Source: Tilletia caries | Lineage: Eukaryota; Basidiomycota; Exobasidiomycetes; Tilletiales; Tilletiaceae | Assembly (NCBI GenBank): GCA_032718865.1 | Contig: JALUTQ010000005.1 | Location: 1,364,001 to 1,428,000 of the forward strand | Direction: 5' to 3' | DNA: 64,000 nt | Part shown: positions 2,371-46,916 of the stretch, piece after piece | Layout: every line of letters begins with the position of its first letter | Position numbering within the stretch: position 1 is the first letter of the stretch | Program-made: the position numbers and the translations under genes | The notes under the pieces: generated by a model | Told to the model about the DNA's origin: nothing | Seen by the model: only the letters and a program-made list of their open reading frames with translations | The model's database searches: none

Positions 2371-4016
2371 TCAAAGTCGACCCTCCCGATGGCACGTCAA
2401 AGGCCCAGCCGGCGGGCACTGCCCTGTGCGCATCAAGATCTTCTCGACCCTTTCCCCTTTTTTGAAGGCTCGGAGGTCATCCCTTCGTGCCGAATCTGAA
2501 CATGTATCAACAGCTTCCGCATCGCAGCTCCCAACCTCAAATTCCCTCAAACTTGTCAAGGTCGATCCTTTCCCCCTTCCCTCTATATCGAGCCGGGTCT
2601 TCTGCCCATCACGTTCATCATTATGTCAACCTTCCAGAGGATGATGCGCAGACGATCCCTTTCTTCTTGCCCACCCGCTTTGGGAACACGAATGGATGCC
2701 GCTGACACAGCGCGTCCTGTGCCTCCGCCGGCATCGAGCATTGAAGCGCTCATGAGCTCGTGCTCTCCAGCACAGATGGCGGCACAGCATGCGATGGCGA
2801 AGTGTTCGATGGACTTCCCAGTCCCGCATGCTGACATGATCGATGGTCCATGCTCGCAAGCACGCGGGTCGCAAGGTCTTCTTCCTGTCACGCCGGCGGC
2901 CTGTGCGACCTGCGCCGTGAGCTAATATCCCGACTCCCGATTTTGATGCTGGTTCATGGAACCTGCCAAAGTGGTGCCAAGCTTGAGGCTGCAGGCACGA
3001 GATGAAGCGGGGAAGCAGATGAGACCGAGACGGAAATATTAATAAGCAGAGCTCCGAGCTCCGAGCTCCGCCTGTCCAAATCTGACCTGCGCTGCTTTGT
3101 CGATCGTGATGTTCTGATCCGACGCTGACCAACAACAGTAAGTAGTGCGAAGCGTGCAGCCAGCACTCAGAGCGTCTCAGCAGCGCGGCGTGCTCATCGC
3201 CATGCACATGGCGCCTTGCTTCTTGGCCCCTGCTGAATCATGGACGAAAGAGCCAAGCCTGGGGCAGTGCAACTGTGACCACCTCCTGCGGCCATCATCT
3301 CACCTTCGACGTGCCCTCGGTGCGGAACTGCTGCCATTCTTGTATGTGAATCCCGCATCATCGTTCCTGCCAGGGATCGTCATTCCCGGTTGGCGTGCTC
3401 GTGCTCGTGCGCATGCGCTCAGCGCTCAGCGAGTCTCGGCGCTGGGACACGTCAATAATCCCGCAACCAAGAATTCTCAACGGTACCGCCGCTTGAGATC
3501 ACCCATTCCAGCGGGTGCCGTTCGGATGAGGTGCAGAGCCACGCCGAGCACACCCAAGGGCCAAGCGCAAGCGGCGGGACTGCGCTGCGGGAGCGGCAGC
3601 CAGAAGCTTTGCCTTGATGTCCGCTCGATGGTGATGCCATTGTGCATTTCCTCATCGTGCTGGTCTCCCACCTCTTTCTCACCGCTCACCGCATCGAAGT
3701 TCTCGCATCTGACCCATGCCTCGATGTCTCATCGCCATACGCCATGGGCATGAGCAATGAGCAGTGCAGCAGTGATCCTTCGGGCAATTCTTGGCAGGCC
3801 GCTGACTGCTGATCCTTCTGTCCCGCCCAGTACACTGCACAGGCGTCCAAAGTGACCAGCTGACATCTTCGTCCTTATAAGAAGCACCCACCCAACCCCC
3901 TCTCTAACCATCTCTCTCTCCCCACGCCTTCTACTTTGCTCTTCCGCGATCTATAATCTTCTTCCTCACCACTACCAGCACTCCTAGTCAGCTTCACCTT
4001 TCAACCCTTCCTCAGC
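2371..4016. other. Intergenic, no supported gene
   Basis: This 1.6-kb stretch has scattered open frames but none with convincing protein character. It holds a triplicated GAGCTCC motif near 3049-3070 and a TATAAG box near 3876, about 140 bp before the fasciclin gene start, followed by a C/T-rich leader typical of highly expressed fungal genes. Confidence 0.5.
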
Positions 4017-5220
4017 ATGAAGTTCTCACTCGCAACCGCCGCCGCTGTTCTCCTCAGCACCGCCCCCGCTGCCCTGGCTCAGGATGTAAACACCACCGCC
4101 TACGCGACCGGTCTCCTTGCGGCCCTCAACGCCAACGGCCTCACTGCCCTCTCCGGCCTTGCTGCCAAGATCAACACGAAGCTGCTCCCCGCTCTCGCGG
4201 CCAACATCGGGCGCAACCTCACCGTGCTTGCGCCTTCCAACGCCGCCATCGCCGCCCTCGGCAACAACCTCTCGGACGATGACATCTTCAATGTCATCAC
4301 CTACCACATTCTCAACGGGACGTTCAACAACAACCAGAGCGACGCCGTCGTGATTGCCCCCACTGCTCTCACGGCCTCGTCCCTGGTTTCCCTCCCGGCC
4401 GGCCGCCCCCAGGTTGTCGTCCTTGCCAAGTTCGAGAACGGCACCACCTACGTCAAGGAGCCCCTCAACAACCTGACCTTTGTCCAGTCTGCCATCAACG
4501 GTGTTCAGTACCAAAACTTGCTTGGTGAGTAGAAACTGCAATTTGTGCATCATCAGCATGTAGCTAACCAATTTCTGAATCTTACCCTCAGTCCGCCCTG
4601 TTAACCAGGTGCTCACCGTCCCCGGCAACCTCACCAGCCTGGCCACAAAGGCCGGCCTGACCCAGCTCGCCCAGCTCCTCACCACCGCGAGCCTTCTGCA
4701 GCCCCTTGAGAACGCCAAGACCGGTCTTACTATCTTCGCGCCCACCAACGCCGCCATCGAGGCCATCCAGTCGACAGCTTCAACATTGAACAACACCCAG
4801 CTCCAGGCCCTCCTCTCGCAACACGTCCTGAACGGAAGCGTCGTGTACTCCAACGCCATCGGCGACTCCGCGGTCAACGCTGCCGGCCAGACTCTGTCCT
4901 TCACCAAGAACAATACCGGTGTCTTTGTCAAGCTCGCCAACACCACCGCCAAGATCACCCAGACTAACATCCTCTTCCGTGGTGGTGTTGTGCACACCAT
5001 TGACCAGGTGCTCGTCGACACTGCTACCAACCCCACCGCTGCCAACGACGCTTTCTCCACCGCTGCCACTGCGGGCCCCACCCCTACCGCTGGCGGCAAC
5101 AACGGCAGCGGCGGTAACGGCGGCAACGGTGGCAGCAGCGCTGCTGCCCCCGGCTCCAAGGTCGGCGCGGGTCTCCTCGCCCTGACTCTCGTCGCCTCCG
5201 GTGTCTACGTTCTTCTTTGA
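4017..5220 (+). CDS. Secreted GPI-type protein with two fasciclin (FAS1) domains
   Basis: A 378-residue protein in two exons: 4017-4524 and 4592-5220, split by a 67-nt intron with a GTGAGT donor, GCTAACC branch site and CAG acceptor. It starts with a signal peptide (MKFSLATAAAVLLSTAPAALA). Two FAS1 repeats follow, about residues 22-170 and 175-320, each with the family signatures TVLAPSNAAIAAL / TIFAPTNAAIEAI and a distal YHILNGTF / QHVLNGSV block. A Gly/Asn/Ser-rich linker leads to a hydrophobic C-terminus without a charged tail, fitting a GPI attachment signal. FAS1 proteins act at the cell surface in adhesion or wall association; the exact ligand is unknown. Many N-x-S/T sequons are present. 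The strong TATA box and C/T leader suggest high expression. Confidence 0.9.
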
Positions 5221-42860: not shown

Positions 42861-43117
42861 GTTCAACACACAACTTTTTGATTCATACGCTGACCCAGGC
42901 CGTGGAGGCCTATGCAGGGAAGAGAGAAGATCATACAACAGGAGGAGGAGTTAAGAGTGAGGACGATGTTGGAGGAGAGGTCGCAGCCAAAGGCGGGAGG
43001 GGGATCTGAAGGAAGTGGGGATGCTGCGCACAGCGGGATCATATGAGAATACCAAACGTACTTTATGCTGCATGTTTGAGCGCCATTGTGGGAGATGTGT
43101 CGTAGCCGGCGTACCAG

Positions 43118-44521
43118 CTACAAGTCCGAGGGAAGGTTGCCAGGGGACGTCAATTCGTCGTTTTTGGCGAGCGCGTCTCGCCATGCGCGTCGATGTGCGC
43201 ATTGCTCGTCGTCTGCCTTGTGCGCCTCGCCGCAGTTGGAGCAGCGGAGGCTGTGTGTGGCGCATGATGAGGAGGCGGTGCTGCTGCATGCTGCGCAGGG
43301 AGGATGGTTGATTGTCGGATGTTTTCCCGCGCACAGCCGACAGACAGGAGATCGGCGACAGTGACGCGCGACGTGGCCGAACTGTTGACAGTGCCCGCAT
43401 TGCTGGAGTCGAAGATTGGGACGATATTCCGAGACGATGCGGGGCTGGTTGTTGTATCCAAGTTGACCCCGGTCCAAAGCCATGCGTTTGGCACCGGGGT
43501 CTTCACAGAGGACGAGGACTGACCCGAAACCGTTGGGGTGGGCCTCCCGCTTCACTGGAGAGGCGAGAAACCGCGTGTTGATGAAGTTGATGTTGTTGGT
43601 GGAGGTGAGAGCAGCTGCCATGCCCTCACCATCCTTGTCGGAGAAGGGTATTCCGTGAACCACGATTGTTTGAAGGAGCCTGAACGTTGGTTCGCGCAGA
43701 GTGGGGAGTGCTTCTTGGTCGGGGAAGGCTTCCGCAAGCCATCGATCGCCTTCAGATGCGAGGACTTGCTCGACCTCCAGCTGGTTGGCAAAGTTGATGC
43801 CGATGTCGCCGCTCCTCAACTTCTCGACCGAGAGTGGTGTGACCATCTCTGATCAAAAAATTGGGTCCTTGAGAGCGTTGAAGATCTGTGGTGCGCCGAG
43901 GTTGCGCGCGGGGTGGTCGGGAGGCAGCCCTTTCGTATTGAGGACGACGCGAAAGCGCACGCGCGGCGCGGATGTGTGCCTGTGCGCATACACCGTTGCC
44001 GCAGACCGTGCGGCAACCGTGCCGGGAGGAGGATTTCCTCGGTTGGGGGTCGAGTCGGTTGTCGGGGGGGAAGGAGCAGCTGTTTCCAGCACCGTCCGCT
44101 CGAGCGCACCGAAGCGGCCGAGGAGCATCTCGAAATCCGACCTGGAGATGGGCGGAGAGGCATCCGCGGCATTCGGTGTGCTGGAAGGGCCGGGAGCGGG
44201 AGCTGCTGAGGAAGAGAGATGCTCCTGGAGTCTCTCGAGCGCTCGCTTGACGTTGTGGAGCTCGGCGTCCTTCGGCTGTCGATACCGTTTACCGGTATCT
44301 GGGTCGCTGGCCGTCGAGCGGATGATAGCGAGGGCGTCCTGTATAATCGAGGACGCAGTGGACGAGTTGAGAGGGTCGTCATTTGAGGGTGCTGACGTGG
44401 CAGCCGCATGAGGTGGAGATTGTGGGGCGTCGGGCTCGTTGTCCGCCCGTCGCGCACCAGTGGACGAAGACGAAGCGTTCGTGGGGACACGCGAGGTGCT
44501 CCCGCGGGCTCTAGGAGGCAT
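43118..44521 (-). pseudogene. LINE ORF1 (Gag-like) with three CCHC knuckles, one in-frame stop
   Basis: Starts MPPRARGST at 44521. Residues to ~90 are disordered and Ser/Ala-rich; a short coiled coil (VKRALERLQEHL) follows. The middle part (VHGIPFSDKD, NINFINTRFLAS, FGSVLVLCEDPGAKRMALDRG) is typical of fungal Tad/I-like LINE gag proteins. Zinc knuckles near the C-terminus are CGHCQQFGHVARHC, CRLCAGKHPTINHPPC and a third CSNCGEAHKADDEQC. An in-frame TGA at 43853-43855, after NALKDPIF, splits it into 222 and about 242 codons in the same frame. No upstream or downstream ORF2 exists. Confidence 0.85.
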
Positions 44522-44584
44522 GAGGGTAGGTCAAAGGATACTTGGCGGGGGAGGCAGTTATGTGTACCAATCCACTCAAAAGTT

Positions 44585-46890
44585 GGGGCCAGCTCCGGGC
44601 AAAACTAGAATCGGCTCGGGGCAAAACTTTTTGCTAGGGACAAAACTCCAAAGCGCCGAGGTGGTGTGGAAGATGGGAAGGTGGTGGTGAAAGTGTTGGA
44701 CGAGCAGAACACGTCGAGCTCTTTTGAGCAGCACAGGAAGGCAGCACATATGAGAAAAGGATACTGGATAATGCAGAGATTCATGTCATGAGAAAGAAAG
44801 GTAATGCATACATATGAGAGTTGAGACCGAAGACAAGCCGCAACGCTCATATGTCATCATAAAAGACATGAGTTGACCTTGTGTTCGACGGACTTGCATC
44901 GGCCGCAAGGCTGTGGACAGCGGCTGCAATTATGCCCGGCTTGCATGCAGTTGCTACAATGCCTTGTCTGCTTCCTCGCTTTAGCCTTTGCCAATTCTGC
45001 CGCCGTGAGAAGACGGCCGGTTGCCTTGGTGGCGGCAGCGACCTTGCGCTGCTCCGGGTTTAGAGGGTCCAAAAGACGAGGGAAACGGACATCCTGGAGG
45101 CCCTCATCCGTGCGCCACTGAGGATGTATGCTGGAGAGCGGAATCGGCTGACTGCTCGCGCGTAGTTGACAGAGGGTGTGCGAGCAAGGAAGACCCATGG
45201 TGACCGTGATAATGCAGGTGCATGTAATCACCCCGGTCTCATTTGATCTCCGTGCTGCTTCCACAGTCTGCCGTCCCATTTCGTCCTGCGCCTGGATGAG
45301 CCGAAGCGCATATCTGGAGACGGTATTGGCGACCTCGACGTAAAATCGATCCCCTAGAATATTGATGGGGACTTTGTTGTGATCGTTTGCAATGTCGCTT
45401 TCAATCTGTGTGTGTTGTACCACAAAGTGATTTTTCAAGGCCTGCGTGACGCTGAAAAGGTTTCCGTGACGGGAATGGAGGTATTGCTTGAGGGTTGCGT
45501 GGCAGCCTTCTGCACGGGAAGTTGTACGCGAGCCCATGTGAGGGTGCCTGTTGATGTAAAATGAAACCCACAGATGCTCCGACGATAGTTTAGCGTCCAC
45601 ATAATCGACCAAGTCTTGACGGACATCTCCCCATCGCGTCTCGAGCTGATCTCTTGCTTCTGTAAGACCCTCCGGCGTCGTAGAGTCGCGTAATTCGTCG
45701 AAGTCGGACATAAATTGATGGAAGGATTCCTGGTCGAGGAGCCGAGGTCGCGCCTGCTTCTCGACGTTCTGCCGGACGTGCCACTGACAATGTATGTGGG
45801 CGTAAGATGATTCCAGGGTGTTGAAAAGCGCAGCACCGAGGGCAGCATCGTCATCTGTGACGACTACGTCTGGATTCCAGTCCGGAGCGAGCTGACGAAG
45901 GGCAGAAAGAGCCCAGGAATAGGTCATGGTGGTTTCGTCCGGCAGAAACGCGAGAGCGACAGTGAAAGAGCGGTTGGAACTGGTCATTCCGACCATGTGA
46001 AGGAGGGGGAGCCGATGCTGATTCGTGTTGTATGTTGCATCGATAAGAATTACCGACCCGAAACGACGCAAAAGCCCGAGACCATGCGGATGGGCAAAGA
46101 AAAGTCCTTCGAGCCGCTCAACACCCGCATTTACCGTAGCGGTCTTCGTGATGTGAGGCCATTCCTGTTCCTTGAGCCATTCCAGCAGGGCTTCGGCTGG
46201 GGCTCGTCCGTGCAGAACTTCGCGTCGATGCCGCTGCAAAAGGTTGGAGATGTCCTTGCTGGTGACCACAAGCGGAATGGGACGTTGAACCAGCATGGAA
46301 ACGATTCGGGAAGGTCGTGTTCCATGGCGAGCGAGTTCGATGATCTGATATTTTTGTTGCGACATCGATGCGACGCTGGATGGCATGGGCCAAGGGACTG
46401 GTGGAAGCAAGATGGTTGTGAGACGCGTTCGTTACCGCTGTAACCCATTTCCCCTCGTGATTGACCTTGAGACGAACACGAAACGGACATCCGGATTTGG
46501 CACTGGACGTTTTGCGCTTTCGGGTCTGATCAGTCAGATCATGGGAGTTCTTGTAGCCGCCCTGCTTGTGACAGCCCATGGTAGAGATAAATGCCTTTGC
46601 TTGATGCGTACGTCCGTACGTCGTCACTGCATAGCCTTCCATCTGCGCCCAAGTCTGGAGGTAGGCCACCCCTTCTTGTTTTGTGTCGAACGATTCGTCG
46701 TTGGGGGGCGGAAGCAGCATGTCGAAGACTGATGGAAGATGAAGAAGATGTGGTAGACAGACAGAAAAAAAGAAAAAAAGAAGCAGGAAGGAGGTCACCA
46801 AAAGCGACAGGTGTCGCGTGTCGTCGGCGTTTTGCCCGTAGCAAAAAGTTTTGCCCGTAGACATTTCTAGTTTTGCCCGGAGCTGGCCCC
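44585..46890 (-). mobile_element. Mutator-like (MULE) DNA transposon, 2306 bp, with TIRs and 9-bp TSD
   Basis: The outer 26 bp (44585-44610 and 46865-46890) are perfect inverted repeats beginning GGGGCCAGCTCCGGGC; similarity continues in a second block with GGGCAAAAC motifs to about 62 bp. TCAAAAGTT flanks both ends (44576-44584 and 46891-46899), a 9-bp duplication typical of MULEs. It encodes one transposase on the minus strand and lies inside the leader of the LINE-like element. Confidence 0.93.
44857..46720 (-). pseudogene. MULE transposase with FAR1-like N-terminus and SWIM finger, one frame break
   Basis: Starts MLLPPPNDESF at 46720. The N-terminal part has a FAR1/WRKY-GCM1-like fold signature (AQMEGYAVTTYGRT, SGCPFRVRLKV, ASHNHLAS). 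A five-base A run (plus 46351-46355) then shifts frame by one, and the catalytic part follows: VILIDATYNTN (first Asp), VVVTDDDAALGAAL (second Asp), CQWHVRQN, SRAEGCHATLK (Glu). A SWIM finger CTCIITVTMGLPCSH and a CCHC-like tail CSNCMQAGHNCSRC close it at 44857. The triad DDE and SWIM are intact, so only the run-length change separates this from a full transposase. Confidence 0.9.
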
Positions 46891-46916
46891 TCAAAAGTTA
46901 GGGTTCAACACACAAC

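What the first reader, a model, noticed from the sequence alone, without database searches (positions are those of the whole stretch)
42861..46916. Gag-only LINE-like element that kept its 5' end but has no reverse transcriptase
A 14-bp target duplication, a short A5 tail and an ORF1 with three zinc knuckles define a non-LTR element of 1713 bp. LINE copies are normally 5'-truncated; this one has its leader and ORF1 but lacks ORF2. The layout recalls gag-only Drosophila HeT-A. It could be one internally deleted copy or a non-autonomous family moved by a partner LINE.
Basis: partly seen in the sequence, partly recalled or inferred. Interest (0 to 1): 0.75.

Follow-up and report, generated by a model that had tools for sequence, protein, structure and literature searches.

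The report
Gag-only jumping element in a fungus
A fungal genome (a Tilletia bunt fungus, judging by its closest protein matches) carries a family of short jumping elements that kept a LINE's first gene and both ends but have no copying enzyme, so they most likely ride on the enzyme of full-length LINEs in the same genome, much as HeT-A does in flies and HAL1 in mammals.

Summary
Window 42861-46916 holds a 1713-nt non-LTR element between 14-bp target duplications, split by a 2306-bp MULE DNA transposon. It belongs to a family of at least 12 copies in this assembly. Six others start with an identical 33-nt 5' end, and each has its own 11-15 bp duplication. No long copy has ORF2. The window copy is an older, dead one: 27 nt short at the 5' end, with a stop in ORF1 and the MULE. 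Full-length LINEs (endonuclease, RT, RNase H) in the same genome share the family's 5' ~50 nt and 3' ~46 nt, which holds a GGCC hairpin; their ORF1 is only 42-46% identical over most of its length. A second, diverged gag-only type (74% DNA identity, one copy) also occurs. ORF1 evolved between the two under purifying selection (dN/dS 0.22), and they share 3'UTR sequence not detected in the LINEs. Against this, only one of seven long copies has an unbroken ORF1 frame in this assembly. It is most likely a long-lived RT-less satellite, moved in trans by a LINE that reads the shared hairpin. Closest precedents: HAL1, HeT-A, MoTeR2.

The parts
42861..42874 (.). target-site duplication, copy at the element's 3' side (GTTCAACACACAAC)
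   Evidence: exact 14-mer occurs only here and at 46903 in the window
46903..46916 (.). target-site duplication, copy at the element's 5' side
42875..44584 (-). gag-only element, main part: A5 tail, 3'UTR, ORF1 and most of the 5' leader
   Evidence: 98.3-98.6% identical to six other long copies, gaps not counted
46891..46902 (-). gag-only element, extreme 5' piece beyond the nested transposon; lacks the first 27 nt that the sister copies have
   Evidence: comparison with the 5' ends of six copies
43118..44521 (-). ORF1 (Gag-like), 467 codons in the one unbroken copy (C19); interrupted here by TGA at 43853-43855
43199..43399 (-). three zinc-knuckle-like motifs: 43358-43399, 43286-43342, 43199-43243
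   Evidence: regular-expression reading of the translation; Pfam is weak: Zn_ribbon_3 below cut-off in the C19 copy, zf-CCHC below cut-off in the C7 LINE's ORF1
42880..43117 (-). 3'UTR; no RT or endonuclease sequence seen
   Evidence: in the C19 copy only the last ~46-52 nt match the LINEs fetched, by DNA comparison
42890..42912 (-). 3'-terminal hairpin TAGGCC-TCCAC-GGCCTGGGTCAG shared with full-length LINEs
   Evidence: 19 genomic hits, 0 for the control pattern
42875..42879 (-). A5 tail
   Evidence: sequence; several sister copies carry longer A or A/T tails
44585..46890 (-). MULE DNA transposon inserted in the 5' leader of the element (later event), with FAR1 and MULE domains
   Evidence: Pfam; near-identical copies elsewhere; 9-bp duplications here and at two other copies
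44576..44584 (.). 9-bp duplication TCAAAAGTT of the MULE (second copy 46891-46899)

Best explanation
This is a dead copy of a non-autonomous, gag-only (ORF1-only) family of non-LTR retrotransposons. Shown: copies of the family share a 5' end, a 3' end with a predicted hairpin, an ORF1 with three zinc-knuckle-like motifs and no ORF2, and were inserted independently with 11-15 bp duplications and A-rich tails; ORF1 shows purifying selection between the family and its diverged relative; full-length LINEs with endonuclease, RT and RNase H in the same genome share the 5' and 3' ends. Inferred: the RNA is transcribed from the shared 5' end, is packaged by Gag, and is then bound at its 3' hairpin by the ORF2 protein of a related LINE, which nicks DNA and reverse-transcribes it by target-primed reverse transcription. 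The selection on ORF1 suggests that over the long run the lineage profits from making its own Gag and borrows only ORF2; since most recent copies have a broken ORF1 in this assembly, Gag may also be shared among copies.
For: Six other copies match the 33-nt 5' end with 0 mismatches, control 0, and have six different duplications of 11, 14, 13, 13, 15 and 12 bp; with flanks of the same size, words of 11 or more were shared by 4 of 3000 random pairs (also 4 of 3000 with smaller flanks). Gaps apart, the six differ by 0.06-0.82% from each other and by 1.4-1.7% from the window copy, so they are recent. The 3' hairpin pattern gives 19 genomic hits and 0 controls; I assign 11 to this family, 3 to the second gag-only type and 5 to LINEs or their truncated copies. 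The looser pattern gives 31 hits against 2 controls and takes in the C39 LINE and two further LINE groups. The C7 LINE (14-bp duplication) and the C36 LINE (12-13 bp) begin like the family: the 5' alignment with the C7 LINE scores 53, against at most 37 in 2000 shuffles. The last 46 nt are 93% identical to the C7 LINE, E 1.9e-14. ORF2 of the C7 and C39 LINEs has endonuclease, RT and RNase H domains. dN/dS between the two gag-only types is 0.22 (bootstrap 0.148-0.311, 298 codons paired in the C19 frame), 0.09 over the zinc-knuckle part, against 1.9 and 2.3 in the wrong frames.
Against: No transposition was observed and no partner ORF2 identified. Only 1 of 7 long copies (C19) has the unbroken 467-codon ORF1: three (C36, C17, C3) shift frame in the zinc-knuckle part and stop after 454 codons, C22 and C5b stop after 215 and 255, the window copy after 222. 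The four-copy A5-for-A4 run conflicts with the other informative sites, and several of these breaks lie in homopolymers, so assembly error or recurrent slippage is possible; if real, recent copies did not need their own intact Gag. Of the eight LINE loci compared (L029-L036) only the C39 one (L031) has a single long ORF2 frame, and its 3' end matches less well (84-86% over 53 nt; 82% over 45 nt) than that of the broken C7 LINE; LINEs outside these loci were not read. The N-terminal part of ORF1 shows no constraint (dN/dS 1.0 over 54 codons, poorly aligned). Within the family dN/dS is 0.26-0.71 where it could be computed, on few changes, and 5 and 6 nonsynonymous to 0 synonymous changes in two copies. 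The second gag-only type rests on one frameshifted copy without a recognisable duplication. The hairpin is predicted only; its stem does not vary among the closest families, so there is no covariation test.
Confidence: 0.85

Rival explanations
1. Simple deletion: the family is a recent internal deletion of one autonomous LINE, and ORF1 is a passenger.
For: Both ends and the ORF1 order match LINEs in the same genome. Six of seven long copies have a broken ORF1 frame, as a passenger would.
Against: ORF1 of the C39, C7 and C36 LINEs is only 42-46% identical over the matched stretches; the highest value for any LINE is 56% over 81 residues of the zinc-knuckle part on C32. LINE ORF1s lie on the other side of a branch with support 100/100. 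The family shares upstream 3'UTR sequence with the second gag-only type (p 0.001 for both ends tested) but not detectably with five LINE 3' ends (p 0.09-0.77). dN/dS to the second type is 0.22.
Confidence: 0.08
2. Two independent losses of ORF2: the two gag-only types came separately from related full LINEs, and the selection on ORF1 acted while those were still full LINEs.
For: B is a single copy, so its gag-only state could be a deletion in that copy; the A and B 3'UTRs match only weakly outside the last 75 nt (p 0.03); recent family copies show little constraint.
Against: The stretch just upstream of the common LINE tail matches between A and B (p 0.001) but not detectably in LINEs. No RT-bearing member of the A/B clade was found in the genome.
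Confidence: 0.27
3. ORF1 has been taken up by the host, for example as an effector-like gene, and spreads as a gene family rather than as a mobile element. There is a fungal precedent: the EKA avirulence genes of powdery mildew derive from truncated LINE ORF1s (PMC4641428, passages read).
For: ORF1 shows purifying selection between the two types and is annotated as hypothetical proteins in Tilletia.
Against: Each of the six sister copies is bounded by element ends, a tail and its own target duplication, and most have a broken frame. EKA genes are described as having lost the zinc-knuckle half, whereas here that half is the most constrained. No secretion signal or expression was tested.
Confidence: 0.03

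Closest known systems
HAL1 (half-L1) of mammals
   Same: ORF1-only LINE derivative with tail and target duplications, said to depend on the RT/endonuclease of full LINEs (passage in PMC5322556; the original paper, Bao and Jurka 2010, is not held).
   Different: Derived from L1 in mammals. Here the host is a fungus, the LINEs with the same ends carry RNase H and zinc-knuckle-like motifs in ORF1, and a specific 3' hairpin is shared with them.
HeT-A of Drosophila
   Same: Makes Gag but does not encode an RT; enzyme likely from TART or TAHRE (passages in PMC5537684).
   Different: HeT-A adds to chromosome ends in arrays (passages in PMC8947103). These copies lie at dispersed sites with target duplications.
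MoTeR2 of Magnaporthe oryzae
   Same: Fungal RT-less element of ~1.7 kb sharing 5' and 3' ends with an RT-bearing partner, MoTeR1 (passages in PMC7367193).
   Different: MoTeR2 is telomeric, has an unrelated 786-bp middle with no obvious function and shares 860 and 77 bp with its partner. Here the middle is a Gag-like ORF1 and only ~50 and ~46 nt are shared.
SINEs that share a LINE's 3' tail (stringent-type recognition)
   Same: A stem-loop 3' end common to a non-autonomous element and LINEs (passages in PMC3747384).
   Different: SINEs have no ORF (recalled); this element has a Gag-like ORF1 and also shares the LINE 5' end.

Membership tests
non-LTR retrotransposon (LINE-derived) | independent insertions with variable-length target duplications and an A-rich 3' tail | tested here: met
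   six of six sister long copies and the window copy
non-LTR retrotransposon (LINE-derived) | ORF1 homologous to LINE ORF1 with zinc knuckles | tested here: met
   42-46% identity to ORF1 of the C39, C7 and C36 LINEs; three zinc-knuckle-like motifs by regular expression; Pfam weak
autonomous LINE | ORF2 with endonuclease and RT in the element | tested here: not met
   no room for ORF2 in the seven long copies; the 247-nt 3'UTR matches LINEs only at its end
HAL1 | ORF1 only, no ORF2, mobile as a family | tested here: met
   ORF1 frame unbroken in 1 of 7 long copies
HAL1 | descends from the L1 clade | tested here: inconclusive
   the LINEs with the same ends have RNase H in ORF2, and Pfam reported no L1-type ORF1 family for this ORF1, but no RT tree was made; that mammalian L1 lacks RNase H is recalled
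HeT-A | Gag-like ORF without RT | tested here: met
HeT-A | telomeric head-to-tail arrays | tested here: not met
   single dispersed copies with target duplications; the C17 and C13 copies lie about 20 kb from contig ends; telomere repeats were not looked for
MoTeR2 | shares 5' and 3' ends with an RT-bearing partner | tested here: met
MoTeR2 | telomere-repeat targeting | tested here: not met
   the duplications read have no common sequence and are not telomere repeats
trans-mobilised satellite of a LINE | moved by the partner's ORF2 protein | not testable with these tools
   needs an experiment; only the shared ends were seen

The most novel reading that the evidence does not exclude
An ancient gag-only retrotransposon lineage has lived in Tilletia since before the wheat bunt fungi and T. 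maclaganii separated. It has kept a Gag by selection while borrowing ORF2 from changing LINE partners through a 3' hairpin common to the LINEs of the genome, which would make it a fungal counterpart of HAL1/HeT-A of independent origin. Three T. maclaganii proteins group with the two gag-only types (100/100) apart from the five LINE ORF1s compared, but whether they lack ORF2 could not be seen.
Probability: 0.4. Interest if true: 0.65.

Novelty: new variant of a known kind. Interest (0 to 1): 0.5.

Why it matters
Non-autonomous LINE relatives usually keep no gene (SINEs) or are dead 5' truncations (recalled). A lineage that lost the enzyme yet shows selection on its Gag bears on an open question: which LINE proteins must be supplied by the RNA's own element and which can be borrowed. 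A compact fungal genome with a few LINE families, two gag-only types and a simple shared 3' hairpin makes that question tractable. It also shows that some Tilletia 'hypothetical proteins' are mobile-element Gags.

Tried and rejected
A chance 14-bp match was rejected. HeT-A-like arrays at telomeres were rejected from copy positions, without a search for telomere repeats. I looked for ORF2 remnants in the 3'UTR: DNA comparison with nine fetched loci found only the end, and reading the three frames by eye showed none; no protein-level search of the 3'UTR was run. An AlphaFold model of the C-terminal ORF1 half was too poor to use (mean pLDDT 41.9, 5 sequences), so no fold search was made; its strand/helix order would fit an RRM, which I do not claim. 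The shared A5/A4 frameshift as proof of trans movement was dropped, since it conflicts with the other informative sites. No target duplication was recognised for the B copy (by eye), for one LINE tail (C25) or for the truncated C13 copy; the 57-nt C4 copy has only 8 bp; the interrupted C30 copy was not tested.

Literature: nine paper searches ran. In the titles and abstract starts listed (some lists were capped) I saw no gag-only LINE family in a fungus; 'Tilletia' with 'non-LTR' gave 0 papers. This covers open-licence papers only. Seven papers were seen in passages; the rest only as listings.

Confidence was lowered from 0.88 to 0.85 and the novel case from 0.45 to 0.40 because only one of seven long copies has an unbroken ORF1; the first two rivals were raised slightly.
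Full report
What is there. The finding's coordinates are exact. GTTCAACACACAAC occurs twice in the window, at both ends of the block, and nowhere else with one mismatch allowed; 0 of 100 shuffles gave two matches. The block reads on the minus strand: a short 5' piece, a large insert, the rest of the leader, ORF1, a 3'UTR and an A5 tail. The insert is a MULE DNA transposon of 2306 bp with FAR1 and MULE domains, a 9-bp duplication here and at two other copies, and near-identical copies elsewhere in the genome. It entered the element later. Subtracting it and its extra 9 bp leaves 1713 nt.

The organism. Five proteins matched ORF1 in the large protein collection, where only the 7993 candidates sharing most words were scored. 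All five are from Tilletia: T. caries (99% identical over 71% of the query), T. controversa (a fragment, 100% over 17%) and three from T. maclaganii (54-63%). The window's genome, 38.1 Mb in 40 contigs, is therefore most likely a wheat bunt fungus, although its species name was not given.

It is a family. The whole block used as a query finds five further long copies matched over about 1.72 kb, a sixth with a 122-bp internal deletion, and 5'-truncated copies. I count 12 copies in all: the window copy, six long copies, and five truncated ones (C30 twice, C4 twice, C13). A pattern of the first 33 nt, with three mismatches allowed, has six hits, all perfect, and no control hit. Each of these six copies has its own duplication, of 11, 14, 13, 13, 15 and 12 bp. 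Among 3000 random pairs of flanks of the same size in the window, 4 shared a word of 11 or more. Of the truncated copies, two have duplications of 14 and 12 bp, the 57-nt one has 8 bp, for C13 none was recognised and one C30 copy was not tested. Gaps apart, the six long copies differ from each other by 0.06-0.82%, and from the window copy by 1.4-1.7%. The window copy is thus an older member: it lacks the first 27 nt, has a TGA in ORF1 and carries the MULE.

The gene. In the C19 copy ORF1 is open for 467 codons. It is the only one of the seven long copies with an unbroken frame: C36, C17 and C3 stop after 454 codons through a one-base shift in the zinc-knuckle part, C5b after 255, C22 after 215 and the window copy after 222. 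C36 differs from C5b by one substitution in 1716 sites but has the A5 run that C5b lacks, and C5b lacks two C in a C run; such homopolymer changes may be assembly errors, slippage or real. Three zinc-knuckle-like motifs lie at the C-terminal end; Pfam sees them only weakly. A genome search with the downstream piece finds ORF1 relatives at 42-46% identity in the C39, C7 and C36 LINEs, 36-44% over most matched stretches of further LINEs on C21, C32, C40 and C39, and at most 56% over 81 zinc-knuckle residues in one C32 LINE. No RT-bearing element with a near-identical ORF1 was found there.

The LINEs. The C7 LINE (C7:2028204-2034752) is bounded by a 14-bp duplication, and the C36 LINE by 12-13 bp. 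The C39 LINE (C39:1617878-1623572) has an unbroken ORF2 frame of 1311 codons and a shorter candidate duplication of 10 bp. ORF2 of the C7 and C39 LINEs has endonuclease, RT and RNase H domains. The C7 LINE is broken: a ~700-bp repeat found at 40 other listed places (40 of 137 candidates scored) sits in its ORF1 region, and its long ORF2 frame appears to end early. The C36 LINE's ORF2 lies in several frames.

Shared ends. The 5' starts are CAACCACCATCATC... in the family, CAACCATCATCTCAG... in the C7 LINE and CATCAACCATCACC... in the C36 LINE, each followed by TGACCCC(C)TAAC and TTGAG. The family's 5' 96 nt against the C7 LINE scores 53, against at most 37 in 2000 shuffles. At the 3' end, the last 46 nt are 93% identical to the C7 LINE (E 1.9e-14), 52 nt are 87% identical to the C36 LINE and 45 nt are 82% identical to the C39 LINE. 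All contain TAGGCC-loop-GGCCTGGG. The strict pattern gives 19 hits and 0 control hits. I assign 11 to this family (loop TCCAC or TTCAC), 3 to the second gag-only type (loop TTT), 3 to the C7-type LINE and 2 to the C36-type LINE. The looser pattern gives 31 hits against 2 control hits and takes in the C39 LINE and two further LINE groups. Folding puts a hairpin at the motif in the nine 3' ends tried, weakest in the most distant LINE group. The stem does not vary among the closest families, so there is no compensatory evidence.

A second gag-only type. The C35 copy (L017) has the same order of leader, ORF1 and 3'UTR with no ORF2 in about 1.3 kb, and is 74% identical to the family in its main matched stretch. 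It is one copy, frameshifted and with part of ORF1 missing. Two 5'-truncated tails carry its hairpin loop, one of them with a 14-bp duplication. dN/dS between it and the family is 0.22 (bootstrap 0.148-0.311) over 298 codons. By region it is 1.0 (54 codons, poorly aligned), 0.17 (114 codons) and 0.09 (116 codons, zinc knuckles). Reading in the two wrong frames gives 1.9 and 2.3. Within the family the few changes give 0.26-0.71, or nonsynonymous changes only in C3 (5) and C22 (6), so recent constraint is not evident. Just upstream of the LINE-like tail the family matches both B-type ends at p 0.001, while five LINE ends give p 0.09-0.77; a truncated copy of the family itself (C13), whose flank there is host DNA, gives 0.13. 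In the two distant LINE groups the cut was not in register with the tail, so their values (0.09, 0.21) include part of the hairpin region. The A and B 3'UTRs without the last 75 nt match at p 0.03. This favours, but does not prove, a gag-only common ancestor.

Tree. With ten ORF1 pieces chosen by me, the family, the B copy and three T. maclaganii proteins form one side of a branch with support 100/100, and five LINE ORF1s the other; the order within the first group is not resolved.

How it most likely works. The family makes an RNA from its shared 5' end, the RNA is packaged by Gag, and is used as template by the ORF2 protein of a related LINE that recognises the 3' hairpin; insertion by target-primed reverse transcription leaves the duplications and A-rich tails. 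The ends, the duplications and the selection between the two types are shown; the promoter, the packaging, the recognition and the partner's identity are inferred. The C39 LINE is the only partner candidate seen with a single long ORF2 frame; the C7 type is nearer by its 3' end but broken in this assembly.

Known relatives. HAL1 (passage in PMC5322556), HeT-A (passages in PMC5537684) and MoTeR2 (passages in PMC7367193) are the nearest. The Blumeria EKA genes show LINE ORF1 taken up as effectors (passages in PMC4641428), but those lost the zinc-knuckle half that is most constrained here. In the passages of the Tilletia genome paper that I read, LINE appears as one of 15 repeat superfamilies (PMC9172201). 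It works like HAL1; by host and targeting it is not HeT-A or MoTeR2, and descent from L1 was not shown or excluded by an RT tree.

Verdict. A real, well-bounded gag-only LINE satellite family. The kind is known from animals; the fungal, dispersed case with a Gag-like ORF appears new within the searches made.

Noticed in passing
window 44585-46890: Nested MULE transposon, 2306 bp, FAR1 and MULE domains in two overlapping frames (44857-46431 and 46118-46897), with 98-99% identical copies elsewhere in the genome.
   Followed up: partly
L029 about 3528-4239: A ~700-bp repeat, 94-99% identical at 40 other listed places, sits inside the ORF1 region of the C7 LINE; possibly a solo LTR (not tested).
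   Followed up: no
L018 about 3781-4258: A ~480-bp element with terminal inverted repeats (GAGGTGGAGGACGAAAGTCTTCGAA) interrupts a short truncated copy of the gag-only family.
   Followed up: no
L010, L011, L012, L014, ORF1: Four of six long sister copies share an A5 for A4 run in the zinc-knuckle part of ORF1 that conflicts with the other informative sites.
   Followed up: partly
G000 C21, C32, C36 (twice), C40 and C27, C30, C32, C34, C39: Two further groups (5 tails each) end in GCATAGGC hairpins with loops CTCTTGC and CTCTACGA; the four loci read (L033-L036) are LINEs, so the hairpin may be common to many LINEs of this genome.
   Followed up: partly
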